Program-made: the position numbers and the translations under genes | DNA from: Acidobacteriota bacterium | GTDB lineage: Bacteria > Acidobacteriota > Holophagae > Acanthopleuribacterales > Acanthopleuribacteraceae | Assembly: GCA_030066195.1 (NCBI GenBank) | Contig: JASJCB010000045.1 | Location: 1-64,000, forward strand | Reading direction: 5' to 3' | DNA length: 64,000 nt | In this document: in pieces, positions 4,313 through 56,687 of the stretch | How positions within the stretch are numbered: position 1 is the stretch's first letter | Layout: the number at the start of each line of letters is the position of its first letter | Notes under the pieces: model-generated | What the model was told of the DNA's origin: nothing | What the model saw: only the letters and a program-made list of their open reading frames with translations | The model's database searches: none

Positions 4313-5659
4313 ATGACGGCAAAGTTTCACGAAACCCTCGGCGCCGATCGCCTGGAAAGCAAGTTCCCCGACGCCAAACCGTTGTACACCGAATCGGAAG
4401 CATATTACGAGGCCAACCGCTGCCTGTTCTGCTACGATGCGCCCTGTATTTCGGCCTGCCCCACCGGCATCGATGTTCCCGGCTTCATCCGCAAGATCGC
4501 CACGGGGAATATCAAGGCAAGCGCCCGAACCATCTTCGAGGCCAATATGCTGGGGACCAGTTGTTCACGCGTCTGCCCGGTGGAAGTGCTGTGCGCGGGC
4601 GCCTGTGTCTTCAACGATCTGAACGGCGAGCCCATCCACATCGGCCGGTTACAGCGTTACGCCACCGAGAAAGCTCTGTTCGATGAAGCCGAAACAGGTC
4701 GCAAGCTCTTCGAGCCCAAACCGGACACGGGTAAAAAGGTCGCGCTTATCGGCGCCGGCCCGGCATCCCTGGCTTGTGCGGCATACCTGGCTTTGGAAGG
4801 GGTGAAGCCCACCATCTTCGAGCGGGGCAAATTGCCCGGGGGTCTCAACACCACCGGCGTGGCGCCGTACAAATTGCACGCCGAATCCAGTCTTGACGAA
4901 GTCTCCTGGCTGTTGAGCCACGGTGTCGACTTGAAGACAGAGGTAGAGGTCGGCAAGGACGTCACCGCCGATCAGCTACGGCGGGATTACGACGCCGTCT
5001 TCGTGGGTATCGGCATGGGGGACGACCGCTTGCTGTCCTTCGGCAATGAGAACAATCCGTATGTGTTGGGCGCCACCGCCTTGATCGAAGCCATCAAGAA
5101 CGATGCGGGTTTCCAACTGCCGCCGGGTGTGAAAACCGCCGTCATCGTGGGTGGCGGCAATACCGCGATCGATATCGCCAGACAACTGGCGGGTTTGGGC
5201 GTGGAAGACGTCAGCATGATCTATCGCCGCACCGCCGCGGAAATGAGCGGTTACAAGCACGAGATGGACTACGCCCGCAAGGAAGGCGTCACCCTGGTGG
5301 AAAACGCCAGGCCGGTCAAGGTTCACCAGGAAGAAGATCGAGTTCTGGGCCTGCGCGTGGCTTCCACGGTCACCGACCAGGAAACGGAAATTGCCTGCGA
5401 CCTGATCGTGATGGCGGTCGGCCAGGAGTCGCGTGTCCACGCTTTGGGGCTGGATATCGAGGTCAATGACCGCGGCCATGTCGTGGTGGATCTCGAGACG
5501 ATGCGCACCGGCAGAGAGGGCGTGTGGGCAGGCGGCGATTGTATCAACGGCGGCAAGGAAGTCGTCAACGCGGCCGCGGACGGTCGTGAAGCCGCCCTGG
5601 ACATGCTGCGTTCCTGGGGTTTGCAGCCCCGTAAATGGCGTTACAGCCCGTCGGTTTGA
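4313..5659 (+). CDS. preT: NAD-dependent dihydropyrimidine dehydrogenase subunit PreT
   Basis: Flavin/iron-sulfur electron-input subunit for reduction of uracil or thymine, the first step of the pathway. The N-terminal domain has the cysteine-rich CLFCYDAPC...CPTGIDVP and CSRVCPVEVLCAGAC clusters of glutamate synthase small subunit and DPYD-type proteins. An FAD dinucleotide fold follows at GAGPASLACAAYL and a pyridine-nucleotide fold at VGGGNTAIDIARQL. The 448-residue length suits PreT rather than fused DPYD. AAGGAG lies before the ATG. preA starts 18 bases downstream, so the two subunits are encoded together. Confidence 0.92.
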   Translation: MTAKFHETLGADRLESKFPDAKPLYTESEAYYEANRCLFCYDAPCISACPTGIDVPGFIRKIATGNIKASARTIFEANMLGTSCSRVCPVEVLCAGACVFNDLNGEPIHIGRLQRYATEKALFDEAETGRKLFEPKPDTGKKVALIGAGPASLACAAYLALEGVKPTIFERGKLPGGLNTTGVAPYKLHAESSLDEVSWLLSHGVDLKTEVEVGKDVTADQLRRDYDAVFVGIGMGDDRLLSFGNENNPYVLGATALIEAIKNDAGFQLPPGVKTAVIVGGGNTAIDIARQLAGLGVEDVSMIYRRTAAEMSGYKHEMDYARKEGVTLVENARPVKVHQEEDRVLGLRVASTVTDQETEIACDLIVMAVGQESRVHALGLDIEVNDRGHVVVDLETMRTGREGVWAGGDCINGGKEVVNAAADGREAALDMLRSWGLQPRKWRYSPSV

Positions 5660-5677
5660 TCGCGGAGGAGAAGCGTT

Positions 5678-7018
5678 ATGGCAGATTTGTCGATCGATTT
5701 TTGTGGAATCAAGAGTCCCAATCCTTTCTGGCTGGCCTCCGCGCCGCCCGCCAACTGTGGTGAGCAGGTGATGCGCGCCTTCGACGCGGGCTGGGGCGGT
5801 GCTGTCTGGAAGACGTTGGGCGTGCCCATTACCAATGTTTCCTCCCGCTTCGGCGCGGTGGACTACGCGGGCAGCAAGGTGATCGGCTTCAACAATATCG
5901 AGTTGATCACCGACCGACCGCTGGACGCCAACTTCAAGGAGATCACCGAGACCAAGAAGAAGTACCCCGATCATGCGGTCATTGTCTCCTTGATGGTGGA
6001 GTCGAAAGAGGAGTGGCGCGACATCATCAAACGCAGTGAGGACACCGGCGCCGACGGCATCGAGTTGAACTTCGGCTGCCCGCACGGCATGTGTGAACGC
6101 GGCATGGGCAGCAGCGTCGGCCAGGAGCCGGCGGTATTGAAGGAAATTACGGCTTGGGCCAAGGAATATTCTTCGATTCCGGTCCTGGTGAAACTAACGC
6201 CCAATATCGGCGATATCTTGGATCCCGGCGTAGCCGCGGTGGAGGGCGGGGCCGATGCCTTGTCGCTGATCAACACGGTCAAGTCGATCATCGGCGTGGA
6301 CCTGGACCGCTTGACCCTGTTACCGCGTGTGGGCGACGCCAGTTCCAACGGCGGTTACTGCGGCCCGGCGGTCAAACCCATTGCGCTGCACATGGTAGGC
6401 GCCCTGGCTCGTGACCCGCGCATCACCATTCCCATCAGCGGCATCGGCGGCATCAGTGATTGGCGCGACGCCGCGGAGTTCCTGGCTTTGGGTTCCACCT
6501 CGGTTCAGGTTTGCACCGCGGTCATGCACCACGGCTACCGCATTGTAGAAGATATGATCGAGGGCCTGGACAATTACCTGGAAGAGAAGGGTATGAGCAG
6601 CGTCCACCAATTGATCGGCCGAGCGGTCCCGGGCTTCAAGGATTGGGGCGATTTGGACCTGAACTACCAGATCGTCGCCGATATCGACGCGGACAAGTGC
6701 ATCGGCTGTCAACTGTGCTACGTCGCCTGCCTGGACGGGGCCCACCAATGCATCCATACGGACAATGGGCCCTGCAGCGCCTGGCACGGCGAACCGGATC
6801 ACGGCATGAATCCCCGATGCGAGGTGGCGCCGCCGCAAAGACACGAACCGAGAATCGCGGACAAACCCCATGTACCCTGGGTGGACGAGGCCGAATGTAT
6901 CGGCTGCAACCTGTGCGCCCTGGTCTGCCCGGTGCCGGACTGCATCACCATGCGCGAGATCCCCAACGAGGCGGGCCCGGAATCCTGGAACGACCACGTC
7001 GCGGCGGGGAAGGCTTGA
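5678..7018 (+). CDS. preA: NAD-dependent dihydropyrimidine dehydrogenase subunit PreA
   Basis: FMN-binding catalytic subunit that reduces uracil or thymine to the 5,6-dihydro form using electrons from PreT. The N-terminal TIM barrel contains the active-site region NFGCPHGMCERGMG, where the cysteine corresponds to the DPYD catalytic Cys. The C-terminal part has two 4Fe-4S motifs, CIGCQLCYVAC and CIGCNLCALVCPVPDC, as in DPYD. Length is 446 residues. The start follows a GGAGGAGAAGCG site. It ends the operon, and a reverse-strand gene end lies only 6 bases beyond its stop. Confidence 0.93.
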   Translation: MADLSIDFCGIKSPNPFWLASAPPANCGEQVMRAFDAGWGGAVWKTLGVPITNVSSRFGAVDYAGSKVIGFNNIELITDRPLDANFKEITETKKKYPDHAVIVSLMVESKEEWRDIIKRSEDTGADGIELNFGCPHGMCERGMGSSVGQEPAVLKEITAWAKEYSSIPVLVKLTPNIGDILDPGVAAVEGGADALSLINTVKSIIGVDLDRLTLLPRVGDASSNGGYCGPAVKPIALHMVGALARDPRITIPISGIGGISDWRDAAEFLALGSTSVQVCTAVMHHGYRIVEDMIEGLDNYLEEKGMSSVHQLIGRAVPGFKDWGDLDLNYQIVADIDADKCIGCQLCYVACLDGAHQCIHTDNGPCSAWHGEPDHGMNPRCEVAPPQRHEPRIADKPHVPWVDEAECIGCNLCALVCPVPDCITMREIPNEAGPESWNDHVAAGKA

Positions 7019-7024
7019 GAAGAT

Positions 7025-7252
7025 TCAGGCTTCTCCCTGATTACCGGAGAGCTGAGCCCGAAAGGCGTCAACTTCTTGCTGGTAGATTTCTTCAGTAATA
7101 ATGCCTTTTTCTAAAAGGCCTTTGAAACGAGCTTCAAAGACATTGACAGCTTTTTTGTTGAACTGCTTTCTCTCTTCTTCCCGACCTTCCTGTTTAACCT
7201 CTTTATAGAAAACTGTTTCCTCAACCGGGGTGTCAAATCCAAATACTGTCAT
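7025..7252 (-). pseudogene. Tandem copy of the DUF2887 C-terminus
   Basis: A 75-residue frame that duplicates, over its full length, the last 75 residues of the neighbouring DUF2887 protein. Both start M..FGFDTPVEETVFYKEVKQE and end RAQ(I/L)SGN(H/Q)GEA. The copies differ at roughly a fifth of residues but keep the frame with no internal stop. An upstream in-frame ATG at 7270 overlaps the parent's stop codon. It may be translated as a small protein or be the relic of a segmental duplication. No separate promoter was seen. Confidence 0.6.
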
Positions 7253-7256
7253 GATT

Positions 7257-8069
7257 TCAAGCTTCCCCATGGTTGCCGCTGATTTGGGCACGGAATGCGC
7301 TGACTTCCTGTTGGTAGACTTCCTCGGAAATAATTCCCTTCTCCAGGAAGCCTTTGAGACGTGCCTCGAAGGCATTGACAGCTCTTTTATTGGACTGCTT
7401 TTCGCACTCGTCCCAGGCTTCCTGTTTGACTTCCTTGTAGAAAACCGTTTCCTCAACCGGGGTGTCGAATCCAAACATTTTCATAATCTCCTTTTTGCTT
7501 AAGGTTTTAAATCGTTGGGTCAACCAGGATAAGAAAACTTCTTCCAAGCATGCTCTTTCGTCCTTGGCTAGAGGGGCCTTGCGGATGACTTTTAACCATT
7601 GAGCGGCGTTTGCTTTAACCGTTTCTTCGTTCTGCTCCAAGAAGGGTTGGAAGACCGCGTACAGCGGATGATCCTCTCCCAATTCACGAAGCGCTACATC
7701 TAAATATATTACCCGAAAGCCGTTGCCGCAACGGGCAAATTGATGCCAGGGATAGGGCTTGGGATCGCAACCCTCATTCAGGAAGACGATGATACACTCG
7801 ATCGTCCAATCCGGCTCTTCCAGTTGCAGGCCGGTTGCCTCATGCAGAAGGCGCGGATAGACAGACACTTCCCAGGCAGCCTGGAACTCGACGACCCAAG
7901 CGGGAAATGTCTTGTCGGTCGGTTCGAAGAGACCGTCGTAGGTGCGGTCCACCTGCTTGAAAGCTCGCGAGGAAAAGGAGTAACCGGCGGATTTATCGAA
8001 GGGAACCACGTCGGCGAACAGGTTGGGACATTTTCTGAAGATTTGGTAGAAGTGAGTATCGGATTTCAT
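7257..8069 (-). CDS. DUF2887 / Rpn-family nuclease-like protein
   Basis: Protein of 270 residues that begins MKSDTHFYQIFRKCPNLF, typical of DUF2887 proteins in the Rpn/PD-(D/E)XK group often linked to recombination and mobile DNA. The core FPAWVVEFQ fits the E-x-Q nuclease motif, and a charged C-terminal helical region follows. I chose the ATG at 8069, 18 bases inside the longest frame, because GGGAGA lies 7 bases upstream. Its tail is tandemly duplicated just downstream. The actual activity here is unknown. Confidence 0.78.
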   Translation of the reverse strand: MKSDTHFYQIFRKCPNLFADVVPFDKSAGYSFSSRAFKQVDRTYDGLFEPTDKTFPAWVVEFQAAWEVSVYPRLLHEATGLQLEEPDWTIECIIVFLNEGCDPKPYPWHQFARCGNGFRVIYLDVALRELGEDHPLYAVFQPFLEQNEETVKANAAQWLKVIRKAPLAKDERACLEEVFLSWLTQRFKTLSKKEIMKMFGFDTPVEETVFYKEVKQEAWDECEKQSNKRAVNAFEARLKGFLEKGIISEEVYQQEVSAFRAQISGNHGEA

Positions 8070-8125
8070 GAGCCGTTCTCCCGGCAAGTCTATTTTTATG
8101 CGCGAATAATAACCCTTAAACGACG

Positions 8126-8158
8126 AAAGGCCGCTCTCCCCAAGGGAGAACGGCCTTT
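8126..8158 (-). terminator. Hairpin terminator after miaE
   Basis: AAAGGCCG pairs with CGGCCTTT around an inner CTCCC/GGGAG stem and a short CAA-type loop. The tail after the stem is only moderately T-rich (CTTTCGTCGTTT on the reverse strand). It lies between the end of the miaE operon and the DUF2887 start, so it probably ends the former. Confidence 0.7.
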
Positions 8159-37052: not shown

Positions 37053-37217
37053 TTACAAATCGTCTCCTGATTCATCAAATCCGATCTTGATTTCTTCAGG
37101 AACATCATCACCATCGTTGTCCCCGTCAGAGCCGGTATCCACTTGATTGACCGACAGGGTTGCGGCTTTCGCCTGGATGGTGTCATCATCGCTTGTTTTC
37201 TTCGATTGCTTTATCAC
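37053..37217 (-). CDS. 54-residue acidic peptide next to the CHAT gene
   Basis: The best start is the GTG at 37217, five bases after AAGGAGGT, giving a product that begins MIKQSKKTSDDDT. The longer frame from 37301 lacks a site. The N-terminal third is Lys/Ser/Thr-rich and the C-terminal half strongly acidic (GSDGDNDGDDVPEE). No signal peptide or cysteine is present. It starts 90 bases downstream of the TPR-CHAT gene on the same strand. It could be a substrate, regulator or secreted peptide of that protein. I do not recognise a family. Confidence 0.6.
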   Translation of the reverse strand: MIKQSKKTSDDDTIQAKAATLSVNQVDTGSDGDNDGDDVPEEIKIGFDESGDDL

Positions 37218-37307: not shown

Positions 37308-40079
37308 TCATAAATGTGCCCAAACGCCTTGGTAGATAAAACCTGCCCAGAAATAGGGCGCATGCCATTTCTCACTTTGCGCCATCGATTGCTGCGCATG
37401 GCTCAGCGCTGCGGCCGGTTCCATACCATCCTTGAAGACGGCGCGGTAAAACCGCTCCATTAATTGCGTGGTTGCCTCATCACTGACAGGCCAGAGGCTG
37501 GCAACAACGCCGGAACTGCCCGCGTGTAGAAAACTGTCGGAAAGACCGACCAGACCTTCGCCTCTCAATGATTTCCCAAGACCGGTGCTACAGGCACTCA
37601 GTACGACCAGATCTGTTTTCAATTGCAGGGCCTCGATGTCATGAGCATATACAAAACCATCGACGGCTTTGCCGTCCCCATCCCGGGTTGCCAGAACCAG
37701 AGCGGAAAGTTCAGGACGTTCAGTCATCAACAAGCTGCGCGTGGCGATGTGGAGGTAGCGAGCCTGTTGAAGGTTTGAGGCATACAGCGCGTGTTTTGCA
37801 GCCCTTAACCCTTCAAAGGATCGAACAGGAAAAGGAGCCGAGGCCGCGATTTGGGAAGCTTCCCGACGGGTGTGGGGCAATGGTTTAAAATCGCCGCCGA
37901 ATTCCGGGTCGGCCAGTACGACCATCTCCTGACCTGAGCGACGTCCCGCGTGACGCTGTTGTAATTTCTGCAAAACCGTAAGCGAGGGTAGGGTAATCAA
38001 ATCATGGTTGTTCATAGATGCGGCCCCCTGATTCAGGGGACTGGGTAAAGCGGCAAAGGGCAAGTAATGCAGGGCGCCGTCCGGGATGAGGATCAACCGA
38101 TCGGTGAGTTGGTCCGCAACGGGACCAAGTAACTTTTGGGCGAGATGCCGACCCAGACGGTCTCTTCGAAGTCCGTTCTGACGCGGACTTTGCAAAGCCT
38201 CGTGAAAATCCAACACATTGCTTTCGATGTCTCGGCGCGCCCCTAAAGCCCGAAAGATCAAACCGTTATGATCCATCGCCCATAAGTAGACCTCTTCCGT
38301 GCCCATGGCAAAAAACAACAATGTGGTGTTCTGGTCCAACCACCGTGCTTGGACCTGTGGATACAGGTTCGGCGACGCCTCGGAGATGGTCCAAGCCGAT
38401 TTTGAGAAGGAGGCCGTTAAGGCATGATCATACCGGCGCAATAGATCATCCAATTCACGACCGATCCGCCCGTCGTCTCCATGTTGGTGACGTTTGAGGG
38501 CGAGCGTACTGATGCCGGCACGCAACCTGTCGATGTCTTCTGCCGTTCGGGTGATTTCTGCCTCCTCACGTTTAACGGGCATCAGTGCATTGACCAGACC
38601 CCGAGCACGCATACCTTCCGCAAAGATAAAGGCTTGTAAACGGGCAGGTTCGGTTGCTGTCTCAACCAATAGGTCTAACTGGAATTCCGCATAGCTGATT
38701 CTTCGCGCCTCGAACTCGGCACGCTGCTTGATAGGAAGGGCATCGACATCCTGCTTACCCATGGCATCCCACACTTGGGCCATGTGTGCCGGCGCGGTAT
38801 CCAGATCACCGAGTCCTTTGAAGGCACGTGCTAATTGGAAGCGGATATAGGCATGATCGGCGGGGTTGTTTTCGGGCGGAAAAACATCGAGAAGAGGCGT
38901 CAATGTATCGATGGCTTTGCGATACTTTTTCAATGCAATCATGGCCTCGGCACGCCGCACATCCAAGCGTTGTACGTCCGTCGGTGAGGAAGAAAGCCGC
39001 AACCTGGCCTCATCCAGAATCTGAAGCCCCCTGGTATGGTCTCCCAGCGCAAAACAAGTTCCGGCCTCGTAGTTGCGAATCGCCGCGGAAATGCGGGGAA
39101 AATCTTCTCCTATCAACTGCAAACCCCGCCGGTATTGTTTGAGGGCATCTTCAAAACGGCCGTTTCCATGATGCATCCAACCCAGCTCAGCGTACACCCA
39201 AGCTTGTTTATCGACAGCCCCCTCAATTTCCCGAATTACCAGACACTCCTCCAGTAAGGATTCCGCTCTCGTAAAAGAGCCCCCGAAGATATAAGCTCTG
39301 GCCAGGGAAAACAAGGTGTTGGCCCGGTCGCGGTTTTGCCGCGGCCGTAACGCCAATGCTTTGTGGTAATGATCGACGGCCCGCGCCAATTGACCGGTGC
39401 GCACGTAAGTCGTGCCGAGGTTTTGATAGATCCGGCTCAATAATTGGTCGTCATCGAGTTCGGAAACCATGGGCACCAACTGCCGGTAGGCAAGAAGCTG
39501 TTCCTCGATGCGCCTCAACTCCTTGAACAGAATCGCCCGTCGCCATAAATCGATAATGCACTGTTCCCGGTCACCCGCCGCTTCCCAGAGACGGCTGCTT
39601 TGCAGGTAAGCATCCAAGGCCGCATCGCCCTCCAGGGTATCGGCCTTCACGGAGAGGGCAAACGCTTTCGCCCGGCGAAGCTCGTCCGGACCCGCTTCCC
39701 GGCTGGACCGGGTGATTCGGTAGATTCCTTTCTCGTTGGGCCGCAAGGCGCTGATCTCCAGCCGATAGGTGCCCGGCCCGGTTTGCAGGCAGAGGAGTTC
39801 CCGCCTGATGCTGCCGATGGGGGCATCGCGGGAAAAGGCGAGTTCCCCATTCGGCCCGTAGCAGGAAACCAGAAGGTTCAAACCGGGTTGCGTCACCTCG
39901 ATTTCCTCATAGCGACCGGCCGACGCCTCGAAATGATACAAATGAACGCCCGTGCCCGGGGATTTTTTTTCAATGGGCTGATCCGGTCCTAACCGTTGAG
40001 AGCGAGGGCGGTCGGAACAACCACCTGCAAGCAGGAAGACCGTGACCAGGATCAACGCCGGCATATGCTGAAAACGCAT
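37308..40079 (-). CDS. TPR-CHAT lipoprotein with altered catalytic His
   Basis: Protein of 923 residues. A signal sequence ends at a lipobox-like LAGGC, then a PPC-like beta domain (LYHFEASAGRYEEIEVTQPG) near 40-130, TPR repeats from about 150 to 500, and a C-terminal CHAT domain from about 600. The Cys dyad residue C830 is in LSACSTGLG. At the usual HIATHG position this protein reads H777-I-A-T-R781-S, so the expected catalytic histidine is arginine (codon 37737-37739, CGC). The ATG at 40079 has AGGAG eight bases before it. It is third in the sigma - anti-sigma-like - CHAT operon. Confidence 0.88.
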   Translation of the reverse strand: MRFQHMPALILVTVFLLAGGCSDRPRSQRLGPDQPIEKKSPGTGVHLYHFEASAGRYEEIEVTQPGLNLLVSCYGPNGELAFSRDAPIGSIRRELLCLQTGPGTYRLEISALRPNEKGIYRITRSSREAGPDELRRAKAFALSVKADTLEGDAALDAYLQSSRLWEAAGDREQCIIDLWRRAILFKELRRIEEQLLAYRQLVPMVSELDDDQLLSRIYQNLGTTYVRTGQLARAVDHYHKALALRPRQNRDRANTLFSLARAYIFGGSFTRAESLLEECLVIREIEGAVDKQAWVYAELGWMHHGNGRFEDALKQYRRGLQLIGEDFPRISAAIRNYEAGTCFALGDHTRGLQILDEARLRLSSSPTDVQRLDVRRAEAMIALKKYRKAIDTLTPLLDVFPPENNPADHAYIRFQLARAFKGLGDLDTAPAHMAQVWDAMGKQDVDALPIKQRAEFEARRISYAEFQLDLLVETATEPARLQAFIFAEGMRARGLVNALMPVKREEAEITRTAEDIDRLRAGISTLALKRHQHGDDGRIGRELDDLLRRYDHALTASFSKSAWTISEASPNLYPQVQARWLDQNTTLLFFAMGTEEVYLWAMDHNGLIFRALGARRDIESNVLDFHEALQSPRQNGLRRDRLGRHLAQKLLGPVADQLTDRLILIPDGALHYLPFAALPSPLNQGAASMNNHDLITLPSLTVLQKLQQRHAGRRSGQEMVVLADPEFGGDFKPLPHTRREASQIAASAPFPVRSFEGLRAAKHALYASNLQQARYLHIATRSLLMTERPELSALVLATRDGDGKAVDGFVYAHDIEALQLKTDLVVLSACSTGLGKSLRGEGLVGLSDSFLHAGSSGVVASLWPVSDEATTQLMERFYRAVFKDGMEPAAALSHAQQSMAQSEKWHAPYFWAGFIYQGVWAHL

Positions 40080-40115
40080 GGAACGCTCCTGAAAGATGAG
40101 CCGTATCAAGATGTC

Positions 40116-40904
40116 TTAAAGCGTAACATGCAATGTGAAGCGGCCGAGATCTGTTTTCTGTCCGTCCCTGACGCCAACGACCTGAATCTGGTGCGCGCCG
40201 GGCGATTTGAAAAACCGGGCCGACAGCCGGCAGGTGAGGTAACGCTTGGGACCGTCGATGGTGCCGGAAAAGACAAGTTGGTCCCGTGCATCCATGATCT
40301 CGAAACCATAGGAAGGGAAGTCGCGCCATTTGGTGGGCAGTTTGATGTAGAGGCTCTGTTCCGGGCCTTGGAAGCGAAACGGGGTTGCGGAAAGGTCACG
40401 GGTGACCATGTCATCCAATTGTATTTCGAGCACGTTGCCCGATAGATCGGGCCGGTTGTCCTCCCCCACAAAGTTCCCGGTAAACAGAAGAAAGAGACAG
40501 GCAGCGGTGAGAAGCCCGTGAACCAGGTAGTGCGGGAGGCGGCTCGAACCGCCCTTTTGCGTTGGAACGGCGTGTACCTCGGCTTCCCCGTCACGAAGCC
40601 GATCCTTAAAATCGGCCCAAGCGGCATCATCCTCCTCCGTGGGCGCGGCGGCTTCCGGCAAGGCGTCCAGATCCAGCAGGGTCCGCACCGCCTCCCGATC
40701 AAAAACCAGGCGGTCCCGGAGGTCGCGTTCCGCTTCCGAACTGAGTTCTTCTTCACGGTAAGCCAACAGTTCTTCCGGGCTCGGCGGCTTCATGCCCGCC
40801 CGCTGCCGTTCCTCCACCATATCAGCCAACGCCTTGTAGAGATCGGGATGGTTGACTCTACCTGAGGGAAGGGCCTTGCCGGTTTCCCGCTTTTCCTCGC
40901 TCAT
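40116..40904 (-). CDS. Anti-sigma-like membrane protein without zinc ligands
   Basis: Protein of 262 residues. A charged cytosolic N-terminus of about 125 residues is followed by one membrane helix (LVHGLLTAACLFLLFTGNFV) and a periplasmic beta-rich domain ending in VRDGQKTDLGRFTLHVTL. The segment PSPEELLAYREEELSSEAE is laid out like a zinc-finger anti-sigma domain (SxEELxAYxxGELS), but the HxxxCxxC ligands are missing. Located directly after the ECF sigma gene, it is its probable inhibitor. It lies between sigma factor and CHAT gene, so it is a candidate target of proteolysis. Confidence 0.75.
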   Translation of the reverse strand: MSEEKRETGKALPSGRVNHPDLYKALADMVEERQRAGMKPPSPEELLAYREEELSSEAERDLRDRLVFDREAVRTLLDLDALPEAAAPTEEDDAAWADFKDRLRDGEAEVHAVPTQKGGSSRLPHYLVHGLLTAACLFLLFTGNFVGEDNRPDLSGNVLEIQLDDMVTRDLSATPFRFQGPEQSLYIKLPTKWRDFPSYGFEIMDARDQLVFSGTIDGPKRYLTCRLSARFFKSPGAHQIQVVGVRDGQKTDLGRFTLHVTL

Positions 40905-41005
40905 GTTCTTCTCCCTGCCGGGCCTAATACCCGGGCGCCGCTACCACTGAGGCGGGTGATATTCTTTATTTCGTACAAAGGCATCACGACATCCCCTGTC
41001 ATCGC

Positions 41006-41533
41006 TTAAGGATCCGACTCGGTCAGTTCCAGGCCAAGGCGCTCCCGGGCCAGATGAAGCTGAGTTTTCACGGTCTCGACGGATATTTTCAAGGTGGCGG
41101 CGATCTCCCGGTATTTGAGCTGGTGATAGATGCGCAAGAGCATGCAGTTGCGCATTTGCTCGGGGAACTGTTCAATGGCCTCGCGCATGCGTGAGCTCCT
41201 CTCCTGGTGAATCAAATTCGAGAGTGCCGGGTTCGCGGACACATCGGCAGCGCGGTCCGCATTGGTTTCGTCTAACGGTACCACGACCCCCTTGCGCTTG
41301 ATGGTTTGCTCCTCGCGGATCTGGTTCTTCCACAGGTTTGCGGCAACTCTGTGAACGAAGGTTTTGAATGAGGCCTCGCCGCGAAACCGGTCTCTGCCCT
41401 TATAGACACGCAAAAAGACTTCTTGGGTGAGATCATTGGCTTCTTCCGATGAAAATCCCTGTTTGGTGAAAAAAAATAAAACTGATCGACGGTATTTTTT
41501 GTAATTGGTTTCAAAGGTATGATCATCCATCAA
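41006..41533 (-). CDS. ECF-type sigma factor of the CHAT operon
   Basis: Sigma factor of 175 residues with region 2 (SSEEANDLTQEVFLRVYKG) and region 4 (LKYREIAATLKISVETVKTQLHLARERL). It leads the operon containing the anti-sigma-like, TPR-CHAT, peptide and TM2-like genes. Its upstream DNA holds the 43-bp hairpin array, so the array may lie in its leader or promoter region. The regulon is unknown; autoregulation is usual for such factors. Confidence 0.9.
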   Translation of the reverse strand: MMDDHTFETNYKKYRRSVLFFFTKQGFSSEEANDLTQEVFLRVYKGRDRFRGEASFKTFVHRVAANLWKNQIREEQTIKRKGVVVPLDETNADRAADVSANPALSNLIHQERSSRMREAIEQFPEQMRNCMLLRIYHQLKYREIAATLKISVETVKTQLHLARERLGLELTESDP

Positions 41534-41805: not shown

Positions 41806-42159
41806 AAGCCTATGTGCAACGTTGTCCATAGGCTACTTACTCAGTGGAAAGCCTATGTGCAACGTCGTCCATAGGCTTCCTACTCAGTGGAAAGCCTATG
41901 TGCAACGTCGTCCATGGGCTACTTACTCAGTGGAAAGCCTATAGGCAACATCGTCCATGGGCTACTTACTCAGTGGAAAGCCTATAGGCAACGTCGTCCA
42001 TGGGCTACTTACTCAGTGGAAAGCCTATAGGCAACGTTGTCCATAGGCTTCCTACTCAGTAACCTGCCGTAGGGCAACGTTGTCCCCAGGCAATGCACTC
42101 AGTGATAAGGGGAGGGACGGCGTTGCCTTTTTCCCGTTACCCTTACTTTCAATTACACC
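41673..42159. repeat. 21-bp inverted repeat enclosing the array
   Basis: GGTGTAATTGAAAGTGGGGG (41673 on) is matched by the reverse complement of 42139-42159 at 19 of 21 positions. The arms lie about 130 bases left and 30 bases right of the tandem array, so the array sits inside a symmetrical element of about 490 bp. The arrangement suggests a mobile miniature element or one large RNA stem. Confidence 0.7.
41806..42106. repeat. Seven-unit 43-bp tandem hairpin array
   Basis: Units start at 41806, 41849, 41892, 41935, 41978, 42021 and 42064, with exact 43-bp spacing; the last is degenerate. Each unit carries AGCCTAT ... ATAGGCT (or ATGGGCT), a 7-bp stem around a GCAACGTNGTCC-type loop, then CTCAGTGGA as linker. 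Where the right arm changes from ATAGGCT to ATGGGCT a G-U pair still forms, which suggests RNA structure is conserved. There are no unique spacers, so it is not CRISPR. It lies between the two protease blocks. Confidence 0.9.
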
Positions 42160-42211: not shown

Positions 42212-42568
42212 TCACTCCGGTTCCATTTGACGGCGGTATTCCTGCAGGTTGCGGCTGATTTTTTCCTCTTGCCAGATCAACATCCGGCCCTTCTCATCGG
42301 CGCGCAAGATCCCATCCATCCAATAGCCGGACCCCCGCCGATCCGACCAACTCAATCTCAACTGGAATTCATAATAGTGCATCAGGTTGTTGTATGTTGA
42401 AGAACGAATAAAGACGTTGATATCCCGCACCTGATCGAAGTCAAGGGAAACGGCCTCTTTACCGGCTGACCGGGCGAGATGCGCGAGGGAGGGCTTCTGG
42501 GAATGACAGCAGGTGAAACACAAGAGCCATAGGAGCAAACATAATCGAACCATCATGCGGTCACTCAC
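42212..42568 (-). CDS. Small exported protein or lipoprotein
   Basis: Product of up to 118 residues with an N-terminal hydrophobic segment LCLLLWLLCFTCCHS that should be a signal peptide; the CC may be lipidated. The mature part has an alternating pattern with YYEFQLRLSW and RMLIWQEE, beta-rich in appearance. The GTG at 42568 overlaps the stop of the 1300-residue protease gene; the ATG at 42556 is an alternative. It is the last gene of the upstream protease block and may be its accessory. Family unknown. Confidence 0.65.
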   Translation of the reverse strand: MSDRMMVRLCLLLWLLCFTCCHSQKPSLAHLARSAGKEAVSLDFDQVRDINVFIRSSTYNNLMHYYEFQLRLSWSDRRGSGYWMDGILRADEKGRMLIWQEEKISRNLQEYRRQMEPE

Positions 42569-45500
42569 TTCATATCAACGGTGTCCATATCCAACACGCG
42601 GTAGGCCAATGAAAAATCCTGAATCCGCTCGCTCCCTTCGCGGGGATGTCTGCCGATACCGAAGTTCTCCGGAGCCAGGTAGCTGGTGCGGTATAACCCG
42701 ATGGCCGCACCGGATAACCTTGCCAGCAACTTGCCCGCCATGTTGATGAGGGTCGCCGCCGCCCCCGCCGCCGCACCGACGGCCGCTGCCTCGGGACCGC
42801 CCAGGGTGCCGATCGCCCCTTGTAAGCCCTGATTATTCAGGCTTGTTTGCAGCATATCACCCAGATCCGGTTCGTTGCCGCGATGCTTGGACACCCAAAT
42901 GGCAATATCCACGTAGTCATGTGCCATGCCGTGAAACACCAAAAGCTTCCCGAAAGATAACCGGTCGCCGTCCTTGACACCGGGGAATCGGAAGGTGGCC
43001 TGTTGATGGACAGCCCCTTTTTGCCCATACTTGCCGTTGGTGGTAACCAGTACATCGATGCGGATATCCGCACCCAGCCAGGCCCGATTTTTGTGAACCA
43101 CCAACGCATCCAGGCATACCGCCAGCTTTCGGCCTGACCCCATTCCGCGTGTTCTTCCCAGGTAGGCCGGGAAGCTGTCGTGCAGCCGGTCATCCCGCAG
43201 GAATCTCGGGGTGTCCTCCGCCGTGCTGTTGGGGTTCAGGTGGAAGTCCAGATGCCGGATCGAATACCGCACATCCCCCCTCTTTCGAGCGCGCACATCG
43301 CGGGTCACCCCCTGGCCGATATGGTCGATGAGCCCCTCTAACGCGGACTGCCGCTGACCGCGGCAAACCCCTGCCGGCGCCCTTGTTTCCAGGGCCGTTA
43401 AGTCTTGTGGTTGATCGGTCACAAACACAACCAGTGTCTCCGGCAAGGGTTCTGTCGTGGGGAGATCGTCCGGCCACGCCATTTCCCAGTCGTAGACCTG
43501 GTCGTAGGGGTCGAAGCCCAGGGTCCGTTTCTCTCCCGGTGATACCTCGACGCCCGAATGCTGTTCGTCGGTGAGTAGTTCGATGGTGCGTTTCAATTGC
43601 AGATCGAAAACATTGATAAACACGGGGCGGGCGCCCCGGTTATCCACCTCGATATAGATGGTATCGCCCAGGCGTAACATGGCTCCCCTGTCGGGCAAGG
43701 GTTCCTTGACGCCCGCCGCAACCCGGCCCCAGCTCAGTGCCAATTGATCGGTTTTCAGGGCAAATTCGCCGGTCCCACTGGTCATGGCTCGCAGCAGACG
43801 GGCTCTGGCTAGGAGGGTTAACTTTTCTAAAGTCAGGTTGGTATCCGAGCATGCTTCGCCAATCTCCAGACCGTCGCTATCCAGCACGCGCATGTGGCCC
43901 GCTTTCATCTTTACTCTCAACGGGGTGTGGGCTTCGTTCTCTTCGGCCAGGCGGAGCCGGCGCGACCCGGCCAGGCCCGCCAACAGGGTTTCCGGCGCCT
44001 TGCCTTCGATGGAAACGGGTTGACGAGCTACCGCTTCTTCCACTGGGAAGGCTTGTAAAACACCATGGAGCGGCTGGTCCGAACGGACCTCAACCCGCGA
44101 AACACCTCCCAAAACCCGGGTCACACGGGCCTCACCCAACTGGCGCTCCGGTGTATCAACCTCCGCGTCTTCCGGTAGGAGCGCATAGACCGAACCCCTG
44201 GTGACGCCCTGCAGACGGCCGCCGCGCAGGCTGGGTTGATCGCGGTCATAGAAGAAACGCAGAACTCCGGTCCGCTCCGTTTCTTCCGTTTGGAACAGCA
44301 ATCGGCTTGCCGGACCCGCGAGGTCGACCCGTTGGGTGGCGTTCATGGCCAGGACGCGCTCGCGAATCCATCTGCCGACCGTCAGCCAGGAGACGGTACT
44401 CGGATCCAGGCCCTTCAGGATCATGTAGAGTGATTCGGTCAGCATGCCCACCACATCGCCTTGCACACCCTGATACTCACAAGCCGATTGCATCACGCCC
44501 GAGGCATTCAGGCGGACCACGTGGGGATTGCCCCCGGCATGGCGCCTTCGCAAACCCGAGACGCGTTCAACGGCCCGGCCCAACCCCAGGTCCCATGCAC
44601 GAGGCAACGCGCGGCAACGCTGCGACGTATCGCGCATCAGCCGGGCGGCGTGGCAGCAATCCAGGATGACGGTGACATTGCGCGTCTTTTCCGTTAACCG
44701 GGCCAGGATATCGGAGAGTTCCCGATCCAAGATACCGCGAAAGTCGGAGGTGGTTGAAAGGGGCATGTCGGTGGGCACCAGGAACTGGTAATAGGGCGGT
44801 TGGCCGCTCCTTTCCTGCTGGTCCGGGTGGTAATCCGGGTTATGGGCCAGACCCCCGTGACCCGAGTAATAAATGAGGACCGCGTCCTCCGGGTTGCTGT
44901 CCTCGATCAATTGTTCAAGAGCCCTGAGTATACGCTGCCGCGTTGCCTGTTCTCCATTCAGGCTGTTCAATAGAAAACCATGCGGCGCCAACAGGTCCTC
45001 CATAAGTTCCAGGTCGTTTTCGGGACCCTGAAGGCCATAGGTGGCACAGCCGATCAGCGCGGCCCGTTTGTGCGCCGTCCCCTCGTGCTTCCCGGATACC
45101 CGGTCAGGTTCCCGCGTCCTTTTCGCGGCCAGGGGCAGGTGAACGGCCGGATCGCCGAGAACGATGTAGCTACGGGAATCCTGCCAGGCCAACCACCGGG
45201 TCAATTGCGCCTGTTTGTCTTCGGTTCCCGGAGCCATGAGTTGACCCGCGAGTCGTGCGCTCACGGCAGCGAAACGGCGGTTGAAATGCTCCATGGCATA
45301 TCCCACGGGTTGCCCGGAGGCCAGACGCATCAGCAGGCTTGTGAAATGCGACACCTGACCACCGCCGGCTTCCTGGAGGAAAGAAAATTGGAAGCACTGG
45401 TCCACATGGCCGATCACGGCCAGGGCCCCATTTTGATGGGCCAGCATGGCCTTGGGCAGGCTGGAAACCAAAGGGACCTTGTGAAGGCGCCGGGGCTTGC

Positions 45501-46467
45501 TGCCCGGGGTTTGGGTCTGATCGAATTCGGGGGTGCCCGCGCTGTAGCAGGCAAACAAAAGGGCAATCAGGCCGGTGAGGTCGGCGTCCTCGGGCAGGTC
45601 CTCGGCGAAGAAGCAGTCCTCGCGCTTTTTGGGGCCTTCCTGCTTGTTCCAATCCGAACAGATCAGACCGCCCTGCATGCGTATCCTTTTCTCCGCCGAC
45701 TTGCGGATGCTGATGCCGTGGGAAACGCTCAGCAGAAGCGACGGAGTTTGCACGCCGCCCAGTAGGCGGCTCAGGCAGTCTCTGGTGGCTTCACCGGCGA
45801 CATATGGCGTTAGAGACCAGGTAATCCGGCCACTTTCACGCTTTGTGTTTATCTTGTCGTTCAAGGCGATCAACAGGCTTTCGGAAGCCATCTCGGTCAA
45901 GTGGTCGCCGTTTTGGACACCGAAAACGGCCACATCCGGTTCGTTCGGGATCATGGTTGCTTCACCCCGCAGCACGTTTTGCGCGTAGTGGGTGTAGTCC
46001 TCGGGCCGGTCGAAGCAGATCCGGCCCACGGCATAGGCCACATCCAGCTCACATTGGAAATCGAAACCGATCCGCTCGGGAGGGCCTACAATGAGTAGAT
46101 AATAAGGCACAGTGTCGGGCTCCGCCTCGAAAGCAGGGGCCTGCCGGCGGTTGAGGAATTGAAGGGCGGTTTCACCGTCCTGGTAGAGCATGGGTTCATG
46201 GTAAGCCTCACCCGCCTGTTCCTTCCGCTTGTTCAATAGGGGCGCCAGATTTTCCAAAACCGGTACGTCATCGGCATGAACAATCACGCCCCAACCTGCC
46301 GAGCTCAGGTCTAAAGGGTCCACCCCGGCGGCAACGTCCCTGGTCTGCAACGCGTCCTCCATCTCACCAACAGCCATGGATGCGATCAGTGATGCTATCG
46401 ATTGCGGCGGTCGCCGCCACTCACCGCTTTCCAGATCGACGCCGTTGAAATAGATGTGTTGGCTCAT
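42565..46467 (-). CDS. Protein with C25/CHAT-like and caspase domains
   Basis: Product of 1300 residues without signal peptide. The first half contains a gingipain- or CHAT-like dyad, H250 in LLLSVSHGIS and C307 in LLFACYSAG, within about 120-445. A caspase p20 domain follows at about 465-720 with H537 in YYSGHGG and C605 in ILDCCHA. A DUF4384-like beta domain occupies about 930-1040, and a long tail ends in a Gly/Ala-rich segment. The N-terminus starts IYFNGVDLESGEW. Two protease-like units in tandem is unusual. AAGGAGGG precedes the ATG. Confidence 0.85.
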   Translation of the reverse strand: MSQHIYFNGVDLESGEWRRPPQSIASLIASMAVGEMEDALQTRDVAAGVDPLDLSSAGWGVIVHADDVPVLENLAPLLNKRKEQAGEAYHEPMLYQDGETALQFLNRRQAPAFEAEPDTVPYYLLIVGPPERIGFDFQCELDVAYAVGRICFDRPEDYTHYAQNVLRGEATMIPNEPDVAVFGVQNGDHLTEMASESLLIALNDKINTKRESGRITWSLTPYVAGEATRDCLSRLLGGVQTPSLLLSVSHGISIRKSAEKRIRMQGGLICSDWNKQEGPKKREDCFFAEDLPEDADLTGLIALLFACYSAGTPEFDQTQTPGSKPRRLHKVPLVSSLPKAMLAHQNGALAVIGHVDQCFQFSFLQEAGGGQVSHFTSLLMRLASGQPVGYAMEHFNRRFAAVSARLAGQLMAPGTEDKQAQLTRWLAWQDSRSYIVLGDPAVHLPLAAKRTREPDRVSGKHEGTAHKRAALIGCATYGLQGPENDLELMEDLLAPHGFLLNSLNGEQATRQRILRALEQLIEDSNPEDAVLIYYSGHGGLAHNPDYHPDQQERSGQPPYYQFLVPTDMPLSTTSDFRGILDRELSDILARLTEKTRNVTVILDCCHAARLMRDTSQRCRALPRAWDLGLGRAVERVSGLRRRHAGGNPHVVRLNASGVMQSACEYQGVQGDVVGMLTESLYMILKGLDPSTVSWLTVGRWIRERVLAMNATQRVDLAGPASRLLFQTEETERTGVLRFFYDRDQPSLRGGRLQGVTRGSVYALLPEDAEVDTPERQLGEARVTRVLGGVSRVEVRSDQPLHGVLQAFPVEEAVARQPVSIEGKAPETLLAGLAGSRRLRLAEENEAHTPLRVKMKAGHMRVLDSDGLEIGEACSDTNLTLEKLTLLARARLLRAMTSGTGEFALKTDQLALSWGRVAAGVKEPLPDRGAMLRLGDTIYIEVDNRGARPVFINVFDLQLKRTIELLTDEQHSGVEVSPGEKRTLGFDPYDQVYDWEMAWPDDLPTTEPLPETLVVFVTDQPQDLTALETRAPAGVCRGQRQSALEGLIDHIGQGVTRDVRARKRGDVRYSIRHLDFHLNPNSTAEDTPRFLRDDRLHDSFPAYLGRTRGMGSGRKLAVCLDALVVHKNRAWLGADIRIDVLVTTNGKYGQKGAVHQQATFRFPGVKDGDRLSFGKLLVFHGMAHDYVDIAIWVSKHRGNEPDLGDMLQTSLNNQGLQGAIGTLGGPEAAAVGAAAGAAATLINMAGKLLARLSGAAIGLYRTSYLAPENFGIGRHPREGSERIQDFSLAYRVLDMDTVDMK

Positions 46468-53168: not shown

Positions 53169-56100
53169 CTATCGAAATTCTAGTGCGGTCAACAGATTCT
53201 CCGCCTCGGCAATGGCTTCATCGATGAGAGCCACTGCCAACAGGTTGCCCATCTGGAAATACAAGGCACGCGCTCTGGTTAGATGAAGCAGGGCCTGCTG
53301 ATAGCGGGCTTCAACCAGATGGGCTCGACCCAGACCTTCTTCTGCTTTTGTCAGCATGCTTACATCGATTTTGCGTTCGAGCAGGTAAGTGAACCAGGGT
53401 ATTGCGAAGTCAGTTAGACCCGCTTCGAGATAAGCCTGTCCAAGAGCCAGGGCATCGCCAAGCTCGGCTCGGACTGCGAACAAATCCAATCGAACCATAA
53501 TCGCGGCACCCCGGTCATCAGCGCCGCGATAGGCGGCCGCTTTGAGTAACAGTTTGGAATCCGGCTCATCAGCCGGCGTATCGATTTTCTGTAACTGTTT
53601 TTGTAAGACATCCGGCGTATCAACCAGTTGCATGTCAGCGATTATTCGGACCGGCCCCGACCCCAGTTTGTTGTTCAATATGGGCTCAATCGTGACCCGA
53701 TACTTACTTCCAGGCCGAAGTGGCGGCCATTGCCGAGGCCAAGACATGCGACAGACAGAAATTGTACTACTGCCCTTGGGTATCGATTCACGGTTGGGGT
53801 CTTTGATCTTGAGCGGGTGTGGACGGCGCCGCCCCGGTTCTCGAAGGGTCAGGCGCCATTCAGCCATATCGGGAATATCGGTCCATACTAATTCGGGCCT
53901 GGGTGAGCTGGTGAACCCGATCGGAGCCAACATCACGTATTTTTCATCGCCACGAGAATAAAGCGACAAGGTGGGTCCCAGAGAGAGTTGTTCGCGGCTG
54001 AACTGATCGGAGAGTAAGGAGAAGAGGCCGGGTGCTCGCTTTTGGCCAATCGTACATAAAGCTTCATCGATCACCCAAGTTCCCGGCCCTTCCAGGCTTA
54101 TCAGGTTACCCGAGGCGCAAAGTAGTGTGGCAACGACTTTCTTGGACGTTGTTAATGTCCAACCCTGGCTTAAAGCACCCCGAAAAGAGGCCGGCCATAG
54201 TCGACCGGCCGCGCTGACAGTGAAGGGACCTTCGAGATCGGTGATCAGGGCGAAGGGTCCGTTTCTTACGGTTACTTCTCGCTGAGTTTGGTTTAGCATT
54301 ACCGTTTGTTCACACTTCAATTGGTCAAGCTCTTTACGCCAGCTCAGGTGCTCGGCATGAGGAATGGCAAAGTAAGCAGCCACCCGTGTGCAGGCCAGGT
54401 CCAACTGATTCATATCGCGATAACAAAGCGCCAGCAGGTAAAGGATCTCGGCTGTTTGCAGAGAATCGTCTTGGGGCAGGGTCAAGGCTTGTTCAAGATA
54501 GACAATCGCCTCCTCAGCGGCACCCAATGCTCTACTCAGGCGCCCTAGATTCTTGAGAGCCGGCACGAAATCACCACATTGCTCGAAGGCGGCTCGGGCC
54601 GGCTGCCAGTTCTTCTCTGCCAGATGGATTTTGCCCAACTCGTGACGGGCTGCCACGTAACCGGGATCCAAGTCGATCGCGCGAGCCAGGCTCACCGTGG
54701 CGGCCTCGGTTTCCTTCAAGGCCAGTTGGATGCAGGCCAGGTTGTAGTGGAAAACCTGGAACACATCAACCTGGTTCACCGCCTTTTGTGCATGGGGCAA
54801 GGCTTCTTCATAGCGGGCCTGCCTGAACAACAGCATCGCCAGATTCGAATGGGCAACAGCGTAGTTTTCATCCATATCGACGGCATTGGCAAAGGCTTGT
54901 TCGGCCGCGAGCAGGTCGCCGGCCTCCATGGCCTCAACACCCTTGCTATTGGTGCGTCGCACCTGCGCTGTCACCGGTCTCAAGCGCTTGATTTCCCCCC
55001 GCGCCTGTTCATCGAGCAGGTTGAGACGGTCCAACAACTGGTAGAGCAACTCCTCCTTCAGGTCCGCGATTGCCTCAGGTGTACCGGCGGAATCCGCCTG
55101 TAGTATTACTTCAGGAAGAGGCCTGCCGCCGCGATCCATAATCGTGGCGACAAGTCGTCTTGTCTTGCCGTTCTCAAGCCGAACAGCTACCTGGTAATCA
55201 GCCTGATCCCGGACTGGTGTGACGCCTTTGACGACCGCCAGGCCCATCTTCAGGGGCGTGGTATCCTTCCAAAGCGCCGATTCGGTTCCCCGCACCTCAT
55301 CGAAAGCGATGCGAATATCGGCCATGGCCTTGTTGATCAGAAAGGCGGCCACAAAAAGCGTCAGTACCGACAAGGCCGCAATAAGAGGTTTCCAGGGGAA
55401 CGGATTGCGAAAGAGCCGACCATTGGGCAATTTCGAGAACAGCACGGGAACGGACCAACTACTGCCGCCTTCCGACTCGGGCAGTTGGGAGATGGCGCTG
55501 CGACCGAGAACAACCGCTTCATCGACAGTTTTGTCTTGGGCCAGTTGCCGGTAAAGCGCAAGGCTGAATTGGATTGCGGCCGGATCGGGAATTTCGCGTC
55601 GCATGGCCACCACGGCGGGAACCCCGGCCTTGAAAAGCTCCAGGGCTACGCCTCTGAGATCGTCCTCGTGTCCGACAACCGCTGAACCATGGCAGGAATT
55701 GAGTACGACCAGATTCGGCCGAAGCTTGTGGCCAATACAACGCAGGTCATTGGCCAGATCCGTGCCGCTGACGGTGCGAAAACCATTCTCGGCATCCTTG
55801 AAATAGAGAACGGGGGTATCATCCACGATGCCGCCGTGCCCCATAAAATGCAGGATATGGAAGCCTTCTTGCAATCGGGCCTGCAAGCCCCGGCGACTGA
55901 CATCATCGAGGTGCCGAACCTGAAGTTTCTCCTCGGTAAGGTTAACCTTTTCCACTTCCAAATCGAGGGTTTCCAGGTTCTCGGGATCGGAGGCAACTGC
56001 CAACACCCTGAGTCGCCGGGCATAGGTCGATGTCGACCAGGCTCCAAAGGTCTCCCCGGTTTGCGCGGTATCGGTCACCGAGCGTACAATCGAATAATGG

Positions 56101-56495
56101 CTGTCCAGTCCAAGATGATGATCGTCAAAGAGCATCTCCCAGGGTAACGCGTGCAGCCGCGCTGACGCGTCCCGGCCCCCTTCCAGCACCAACTCCAGCC
56201 GTAGGGGCTGTCGGCGAAACTGTTGGAAGCGCTCGCCGAGTTTGCCTTGAAACAAGGCATCATACAGGCGTTTGCCCACCGCTTCAGCATCGAGTCCCGG
56301 CTTTCGGCGCTTGACATGAACGCAGCGGTCGGAACGGGAAATCCCCCCTGCTTTGAAGCTATTGAAACCTTCAGGCAAGCGAAATTCTACCTTGGAGGTA
56401 CGGCCTTTGTCCGGGTCTGTTGCCCACGCGGTATACAAACCATCTGTCGATGCTGTTATTTGAATCACAAAGTCTCGATAGACATTAACCGGCAT
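53169..56495 (-). CDS. CHAT - membrane helix - TPR protein
   Basis: Product of 1108 residues from the ATG at 56495, which has GAGGTG five bases upstream; the frame begins 47 codons earlier without a site. The N-terminal CHAT domain has an intact dyad, H220 in LHFMGHGG and C268 in VLNSCHGS. A membrane helix follows at about 368-390, then TPR repeats around 480-720 and a beta-rich region near 730-960, and a second TPR-like stretch to the end. The catalytic domain would be cytosolic and the TPR part extracytoplasmic. First large gene of the upstream protease block. Confidence 0.87.
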   Translation of the reverse strand: MPVNVYRDFVIQITASTDGLYTAWATDPDKGRTSKVEFRLPEGFNSFKAGGISRSDRCVHVKRRKPGLDAEAVGKRLYDALFQGKLGERFQQFRRQPLRLELVLEGGRDASARLHALPWEMLFDDHHLGLDSHYSIVRSVTDTAQTGETFGAWSTSTYARRLRVLAVASDPENLETLDLEVEKVNLTEEKLQVRHLDDVSRRGLQARLQEGFHILHFMGHGGIVDDTPVLYFKDAENGFRTVSGTDLANDLRCIGHKLRPNLVVLNSCHGSAVVGHEDDLRGVALELFKAGVPAVVAMRREIPDPAAIQFSLALYRQLAQDKTVDEAVVLGRSAISQLPESEGGSSWSVPVLFSKLPNGRLFRNPFPWKPLIAALSVLTLFVAAFLINKAMADIRIAFDEVRGTESALWKDTTPLKMGLAVVKGVTPVRDQADYQVAVRLENGKTRRLVATIMDRGGRPLPEVILQADSAGTPEAIADLKEELLYQLLDRLNLLDEQARGEIKRLRPVTAQVRRTNSKGVEAMEAGDLLAAEQAFANAVDMDENYAVAHSNLAMLLFRQARYEEALPHAQKAVNQVDVFQVFHYNLACIQLALKETEAATVSLARAIDLDPGYVAARHELGKIHLAEKNWQPARAAFEQCGDFVPALKNLGRLSRALGAAEEAIVYLEQALTLPQDDSLQTAEILYLLALCYRDMNQLDLACTRVAAYFAIPHAEHLSWRKELDQLKCEQTVMLNQTQREVTVRNGPFALITDLEGPFTVSAAGRLWPASFRGALSQGWTLTTSKKVVATLLCASGNLISLEGPGTWVIDEALCTIGQKRAPGLFSLLSDQFSREQLSLGPTLSLYSRGDEKYVMLAPIGFTSSPRPELVWTDIPDMAEWRLTLREPGRRRPHPLKIKDPNRESIPKGSSTISVCRMSWPRQWPPLRPGSKYRVTIEPILNNKLGSGPVRIIADMQLVDTPDVLQKQLQKIDTPADEPDSKLLLKAAAYRGADDRGAAIMVRLDLFAVRAELGDALALGQAYLEAGLTDFAIPWFTYLLERKIDVSMLTKAEEGLGRAHLVEARYQQALLHLTRARALYFQMGNLLAVALIDEAIAEAENLLTALEFR

Positions 56496-56687
56496 GGTAA
56501 CACCTCGTATCATTTTCAGGCCAGGATTCAGTGATCTTATGGATTTTGCCGGTGAGTCAGGCCGGCGGCTTTGTGACCAGATTGTGACGGCTATCCTTAG
56601 TCGATCGGTTAGATGGTCTAAATGAGCGGTTGGCACACGAGACCCGGCAAGGTGAAATCATCGTGTCACCATTGACCGGTAGCGGGG

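What the first reader, a model, noticed from the sequence alone, without database searches (positions are those of the whole stretch)
37308..41533. Sigma - anti-sigma-like - TPR-CHAT operon resembling CRISPR-associated protease signalling without the CRISPR
In type III-E CRISPR (Craspase) loci a TPR-CHAT protease cleaves Csx30, which restrains the CASP-sigma factor. Here a TPR-CHAT gene, a membrane protein in the anti-sigma position and an ECF sigma gene are in one operon, but no Cas gene or spacer array is in the window. The gene order is seen; the functional parallel is my inference.
Basis: partly seen in the sequence, partly recalled or inferred. Interest (0 to 1): 0.75.

Follow-up and report, generated by a model that had tools for sequence, protein, structure and literature searches.

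The report
Membrane sigma switch with CHAT lipoprotein
A bacterium related to animal-associated acidobacteria carries a gene-switch operon in which a membrane-anchored inhibitor of a transcription factor is paired with a caspase-like protein predicted to sit outside the cytoplasm; it looks like a split version of the myxobacterial DdvS/DdvA switch, not a CRISPR-less Craspase, and the caspase-like protein in this copy has lost a catalytic residue.

Summary
The gene order is real: ECF sigma (41006-41533), one-TM protein (40116-40904), TPR-CHAT (37308-40079), all on the minus strand. It is a family, not a curiosity. Nine such sigma-upstream-of-CHAT sets occur in this genome (0.17 expected), and the anti-sigma profile alone leads to an adjacent CHAT gene in 14 of 18 loci from other Acidobacteriota. 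The middle protein is a class I anti-sigma factor: relatives carry zf-HC2 zinc motifs and the family profile's best solved matches are the anti-sigmas ChrR, DdvA, 3hug and RsiW. The Craspase reading fails on three tests. The genome has no Cas1 and no RAMP protein; the TPR-CHAT begins with a lipoprotein-type signal, so it should act outside the cytoplasm; and its catalytic histidine (H585 of the Craspase CHAT) is arginine here, one of 2 losses in 148 CHATs. The best solved sequence match of the CHAT domain is DdvA, the CHAT-bearing transmembrane anti-sigma of Myxococcus. The operon is best read as a split DdvS/DdvA system: an extracytoplasmic TPR-CHAT sensor, probably non-proteolytic in this copy, gating a membrane anti-sigma. 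An unexplained small hydrophilic fourth gene follows many CHAT genes. New variant of a known kind.

The parts
41006..41533 (-). ECF sigma factor, regions 2 and 4 (TTG 41533 or ATG 41530)
   Evidence: Pfam PF04542 and PF08281; NCBIfam sigma70-ECF 8.6e-28
40116..40904 (-). Membrane anti-sigma factor, 262 aa, class I anti-sigma domain without zinc ligands
   Evidence: Family profile A5 hits ChrR 2e-7, DdvA 1e-3, 3hug 1e-3, RsiW 0.03; relatives carry zf-HC2; AF2 helices 43-105
40476..40532 (-). Transmembrane helix of the anti-sigma factor (residues 125-143)
   Evidence: Hydropathy peak at residue 128 and AF2 helix 125-143; extracytoplasmic beta-sandwich follows at residues 158-261
37308..40079 (-). 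TPR-CHAT putative lipoprotein, 923 aa
   Evidence: CHAT 3.7e-60 and TPRs; AF2 model pLDDT 82, Foldseek top hits TPR-CHAT/Csx29, DdvA, separase
40017..40079 (-). Signal peptide with lipobox-like LAGGC (residues 1-21)
   Evidence: Read from sequence; Cys21 invariant in four paralogues only 28-33% identical to the window copy
39696..39974 (-). N-terminal beta-sandwich domain, PPC-like
   Evidence: AF2 strands 36-128; paralogue C90 matches PPC PF04151 above cut-off; the window copy has no hit
37326..38159 (-). CHAT domain
   Evidence: PF12770 207.8 bits
37737..37739 (-). Arg781 (CGC) in place of the catalytic His
   Evidence: Column aligns with DiCHAT H585; His in 146 of 148 CHATs
37590..37592 (-). 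Cys830, the retained catalytic Cys
   Evidence: Aligns with DiCHAT C627; Cys in 148 of 148
37053..37217 (-). Candidate fourth gene: 54-aa acidic hydrophilic peptide, GTG start, AAGGAGGT Shine-Dalgarno
   Evidence: Similar SD-preceded hydrophilic ORFs follow CHAT in 13 of 23 membrane triads, 0-1 of 26 non-triad CHATs

Best explanation
This is a membrane sigma / anti-sigma switch with an extracytoplasmic TPR-CHAT partner, a split form of the Myxococcus DdvS/DdvA arrangement. Shown by sequence: an ECF sigma; a class I anti-sigma with one TM helix and an extracytoplasmic beta-sandwich; a TPR-CHAT protein with a lipoprotein-type signal and a beta-domain; and co-inheritance of the three. Inferred: in the resting cell the anti-sigma holds the sigma at the inner membrane; the TPR-CHAT lipoprotein senses an envelope or surface signal (probably through the TPR and beta domains) and acts on the extracytoplasmic domain of the anti-sigma, so that the sigma is released. 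In paralogues with intact His-Cys the CHAT domain may make the first (site-1) cut, with a cellular protease finishing. In the window copy, which lacks the catalytic His, the effect must be by binding or conformational change, or by shielding or exposing the anti-sigma to another protease.
For: Middle gene: its family profile's top solved matches are ChrR, DdvA, 3hug and RsiW; zf-HC2 in relatives; ASDI-like helices, TM and beta-sandwich in the model. Export: invariant Cys after the hydrophobic stretch and a PPC domain in C90. DdvA (8rot) matches the CHAT profile at residues 825-969, E 1.9e-10, and the anti-sigma profile at 7-47 (E 0.12; the isolated DdvA domain 8rlz at 0.001): both modules in one polypeptide. 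Recurrence: 9 in this genome against 0.17 expected; relatives of the family; 14 of 18 loci fetched with the anti-sigma profile have CHAT next door. Sigma and CHAT distances correlate, r = 0.69, P = 2e-4; own-genome paralogues alone P = 0.009. His lost in 2 of 148, Cys kept in 148 of 148.
Against: No interaction was tested. Export rests on the N-terminal sequence and domain content, not on a trained signal-peptide predictor, and the lipobox is not strict (Ala at -3). The anti-sigma of the window has no zinc motif and no Pfam hit of its own. Its AF2 model is weak in the N-terminal half (mean pLDDT 68 overall). The DdvA full-length match at the anti-sigma end is not significant alone. Order and orientation vary across the phylum (CHAT upstream, convergent or divergent), so a fixed operon is not universal. 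No ECF-type promoter was shared upstream of the sigma genes, so autoregulation is not shown.
Confidence: 0.66

Rival explanations
1. Craspase-like: the CHAT protease cleaves the anti-sigma, as Csx29 cleaves Csx30, and so frees the sigma.
For: Same three kinds of part; the AF2 model of the TPR-CHAT has Csx29/TPR-CHAT structures as top Foldseek hits; most paralogues keep His and Cys.
Against: No Cas1 or RAMP in the genome; predicted export of the CHAT protein; the window copy has Arg in place of H585.
Confidence: 0.12
2. Effector model: the TPR-CHAT is the output, not the sensor. The sigma/anti-sigma pair senses envelope stress by itself and switches on its own operon, including the CHAT lipoprotein and the small peptide, which act on an outside target.
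For: The gene lies downstream of a complete sigma/anti-sigma pair; ECF factors often autoregulate (general knowledge); a small hydrophilic gene follows; many exported TPR-CHATs in other phyla stand without any sigma.
Against: DdvA fuses anti-sigma and CHAT in one protein, which places CHAT on the signalling side; sigma and CHAT sequences co-vary; no common promoter was found; CHAT can also lie upstream of the sigma (L186, L190, L194).
Confidence: 0.2

Closest known systems
DdvS/DdvA ECF sigma / transmembrane anti-sigma of Myxococcus xanthus (PDB 8rot, 8rw5, 8rlz)
   Same: ECF sigma; class I anti-sigma domain; membrane; CHAT domain. DdvS becomes active when DdvA is inactivated (PMC4374960). Both our profiles match DdvA, at opposite ends.
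   Different: In DdvA the anti-sigma and CHAT parts are one protein; here they are two genes, with CHAT on a separate lipoprotein and an extra beta-sandwich on the anti-sigma. From memory, not checked here: DdvS controls a type III-B CRISPR-Cas system; this genome has no RAMP or Cas1.
Craspase / CASP (type III-E: Cas7-11, Csx29 TPR-CHAT, Csx30, CASP-sigma)
   Same: TPR-CHAT fold and a sigma/inhibitor pair; Csx29 cuts Csx30, which inhibits CASP-sigma, and needs H615 and C658 (PMC10028731).
   Different: No Cas genes, exported instead of cytoplasmic CHAT, an ASDI-type membrane anti-sigma instead of Csx30, catalytic His missing in the window copy.
RseA/RpoE- and RsiW/SigW-type regulated proteolysis of membrane anti-sigma factors
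   Same: ECF sigma held by a one-TM class I anti-sigma; signal from outside.
   Different: The site-1 protease there is DegS or another enzyme; here the operon brings its own TPR-CHAT.
ECF54 group (CHAT, subtilase and carboxypeptidase genes in context)
   Same: ECF sigma with CHAT in its gene neighbourhood (PMC8999054).
   Different: Described as lacking an anti-sigma factor; the model example is actinobacterial. Membership of our sigma was not tested.

Membership tests
DdvS/DdvA system | ECF sigma next to a class I anti-sigma with a TM helix | tested here: met
DdvS/DdvA system | CHAT domain in the same polypeptide as the anti-sigma domain | tested here: not met
   Separate genes 40116-40904 and 37308-40079
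DdvS/DdvA system | CHAT part related in sequence to DdvA | tested here: met
   8rot E 1.9e-10 with CHAT profile A4, best PDB hit
DdvS/DdvA system | Sigma controls CRISPR-cas genes | not testable with these tools
   Regulon not computable; no Cas1 or RAMP in the genome
Craspase / type III-E CASP | Cas7-11 (RAMP) effector and Cas genes | tested here: not met
   No RAMP, no Cas1, no array in the window
Craspase / type III-E CASP | TPR-CHAT with catalytic His and Cys | tested here: not met
   Arg at the H585 column, Cys kept
Craspase / type III-E CASP | Cytoplasmic CHAT protein | tested here: not met
   N-terminal signal with invariant Cys, PPC domain in a paralogue; localisation itself not measured
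Craspase / type III-E CASP | Csx30-type sigma inhibitor | not tested
   Csx30 was not compared directly; the middle gene matches class I anti-sigmas instead
Class I anti-sigma factors (ASDI) | N-terminal helical anti-sigma domain related to known members | tested here: met
   Profile A5 vs ChrR 2e-7, DdvA 1e-3, 3hug 1e-3, RsiW 0.03
Class I anti-sigma factors (ASDI) | Hx3Cx2C zinc motif (present in about 56% of the class, PMC7406223; not required) | tested here: not met
   Window reads RLVFDREA; most relatives have HxxxCxxC
ECF sigma factors | Regions 2 and 4, co-encoded anti-sigma | tested here: met
ECF54 group | Sequence membership of the ECF54 group | not tested
   No ECF group models at hand

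The most novel reading that the evidence does not exclude
A four-gene envelope signalling module widespread in Acidobacteriota, in which an exported separase-like TPR-CHAT protein controls a membrane anti-sigma factor, with catalytic and pseudo-catalytic copies side by side in one genome and a small repeat-bearing hydrophilic peptide as its ligand or substrate.
Probability: 0.3. Interest if true: 0.72.

Novelty: new variant of a known kind. Interest (0 to 1): 0.52.

Why it matters
CHAT proteins are known as cytoplasmic proteases in CRISPR signalling and as relatives of separase. Here they are predicted to lie outside the cytoplasm and to be wired repeatedly into sigma-factor switches, nine times in one genome and across the phylum. 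That offers a natural set, with intact and lost catalytic sites, to test whether CHAT domains signal by cutting or by binding, and it suggests how a fused regulator such as DdvA and split systems relate. The library searched held one paper naming CHAT genes near ECF factors (ECF54) and none describing this three-gene set.

Tried and rejected
Craspase membership: rejected. CRISPR array: the main array-like feature in the window is a 43-bp tandem palindromic repeat, dispersed in the genome and not CRISPR-like. ECF-type promoter upstream of the sigma: a GGAAC-N15-GTC string at about 41637-41615 exists, but such strings are no more common upstream of the paralogous sigmas than in shuffles (2 seen, 3 expected), so no autoregulation claim. 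Fold search of the anti-sigma model gave only generic beta-sandwich matches. PPC in the window's own lipoprotein: no Pfam hit. NCBIfam for the small peptides: nothing. PADLOC: only generic TPR/caspase matches. The NAR 2018 DdvS/DdvA paper was not held.

Full report
What is there. On the minus strand lie an ECF sigma gene (41006-41533), a 262-aa gene (40116-40904) and a TPR-CHAT gene (37308-40109 as an ORF; the likelier start is ATG 40079 behind AGGAG, 923 aa). Pfam gives Sigma70_r2/r4 for the first, nothing for the second, CHAT 3.7e-60 plus TPRs for the third.

Not chance, and not rare. The genome (11.6 Mb, 407 contigs, 92% complete) holds 35 CHAT matches and 45 sigma region-2 matches. Nine CHAT genes have a co-directional sigma within 2.5 kb upstream; 0.17 are expected. 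The same set recurs in five other genomes of the family. As a test that does not start from CHAT I searched 119 Acidobacteriota genomes with the anti-sigma profile alone and fetched 18 high-scoring loci, favouring matches that reach the C-terminal part; 14 have a CHAT gene adjacent, in several orders and orientations. Distances between sigmas and between CHATs correlate (r = 0.69, P = 2e-4; own-genome paralogues alone P = 0.009).

The middle gene is an anti-sigma factor. Paralogues and relatives carry HxxxCxxC before a single TM helix, and four pass the zf-HC2 cut-off. A profile of 17 members has as its best solved matches the anti-sigma factors ChrR (2e-7), DdvA (1e-3), 3hug (1e-3) and RsiW (0.03); 3hug is labelled a conserved membrane protein in the PDB and is, from memory, a mycobacterial anti-sigma factor. 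The window copy has lost the zinc ligands (RLVFDREA), as almost half of class I anti-sigmas have (PMC7406223). AlphaFold2 gives helices at 43-105, a TM helix at 125-143 and a confident extracytoplasmic beta-sandwich at 158-261.

The TPR-CHAT is predicted to be exported. It starts MRFQHMPALILVTVFLLAGGC; the Cys is invariant in four paralogues that are 28-33% identical to it, most other members of membrane triads have a lipobox-like or ordinary signal sequence, and paralogue C90 has a PPC domain above the Pfam cut-off. This is sequence inference; no trained predictor was available.

The catalytic histidine is missing. The CHAT profile aligns to the Craspase TPR-CHAT so that the columns fall on its H585 and C627 (counted from the alignment; residues from PMC9729208). 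The window has Arg781 (CGC) and Cys830. Of 148 CHATs, 146 have His; the exceptions are the window and the C345 paralogue, both in this genome and both in triads; Cys is kept in all 148. A canonical protease activity of the window copy is therefore unlikely.

Closest known system. The best solved sequence match of the CHAT profile is 8rot (1.9e-10), ahead of the Craspase structures; its title is the transmembrane anti-sigma factor DdvA. The anti-sigma profile matches the isolated DdvA domain 8rlz (0.001) and residues 7-47 of 8rot (0.12, not significant alone). DdvA thus carries, fused, what here is two genes. DdvS becomes active when DdvA is inactivated (PMC4374960). From memory, DdvS/DdvA controls a type III-B CRISPR-Cas system and DdvA's large C-terminal part is thought to sense an extracytoplasmic signal; that paper could not be read. 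The AF2 model of the window TPR-CHAT (pLDDT 82) matches TPR-CHAT/Csx29, DdvA and separase by fold.

Craspase is excluded as a membership: no RAMP and no Cas1 in the genome, no CRISPR-like array in the window. An ECF-CHAT association was already noted for group ECF54, there without an anti-sigma (PMC8999054).

Mechanism. I think it most likely that the lipoprotein senses an envelope signal and acts on the beta-sandwich of the anti-sigma, releasing the sigma; by cutting in paralogues with an intact dyad, by binding in this copy. The parts and their topology are read from sequence; the interaction, the signal and the direction of control are inferred. The chief rival is that the CHAT protein is an output of the sigma.

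A fourth gene. Behind the CHAT gene, 13 of 23 membrane triads have an SD-preceded, hydrophilic, mostly acidic ORF (window: 37053-37217, 54 aa), against none of 26 non-triad CHATs (one if basic ORFs count; Fisher 4e-6 or 6e-5; criteria were set after looking). Several carry repeats such as NPKPDGTLGFSAP. Two acidobacterial loci, L100 and L109, have clearly homologous ones. Their role is unknown.

Host. The genome is in the same family as G002, a single 11,786,365-bp contig that matches in size the 11.79-Mb genome of Sulfidibacter corallicola (PMC8841776); I infer Acanthopleuribacteraceae.

Noticed in passing
37053-37217 (-); L046, L051, L059, L062, L069, L071, L091, L193 downstream of CHAT: Small SD-preceded hydrophilic peptides, some with tandem repeats (e.g. 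EPEDPTTGNPKPDGTLGFSAPRR, EPKPGLATEEGFADGG), behind CHAT genes of membrane triads; no family match.
   Followed up: partly
41806-42060: Six copies of a 43-bp tandem unit containing a near-perfect palindrome, upstream of the sigma gene; the unit also occurs on contigs C44, C163, C174 and C327.
   Followed up: partly
L032 5650-9593, L076, L077, L079: A second type of set: sigma, a roughly 120-170-aa protein mostly without a clear TM helix, and a CHAT protein with no signal sequence (motifs FAGH and NLASC). This apparently cytoplasmic version is a better place to look for a Craspase-like cut.
   Followed up: no
L029 (C345) 4985-8140: The other CHAT with Arg in place of the catalytic His; its anti-sigma keeps the zinc motif, so the two losses may be independent.
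   Followed up: partly
42565-46467 and 53169-56636: A 1300-aa protein with a caspase (Peptidase_C14) domain and weak C25 similarity, and a second, divergent CHAT protein, on the same strand near the triad.
   Followed up: no
L014 4380-5644, L017 425-1569 and 10058-11253, L018 14701-15815: Sigma genes followed by a short one-TM protein with a TPR-like C-terminus, next to CHAT genes in other orientations: another sigma/regulator type in the same genome.
   Followed up: no
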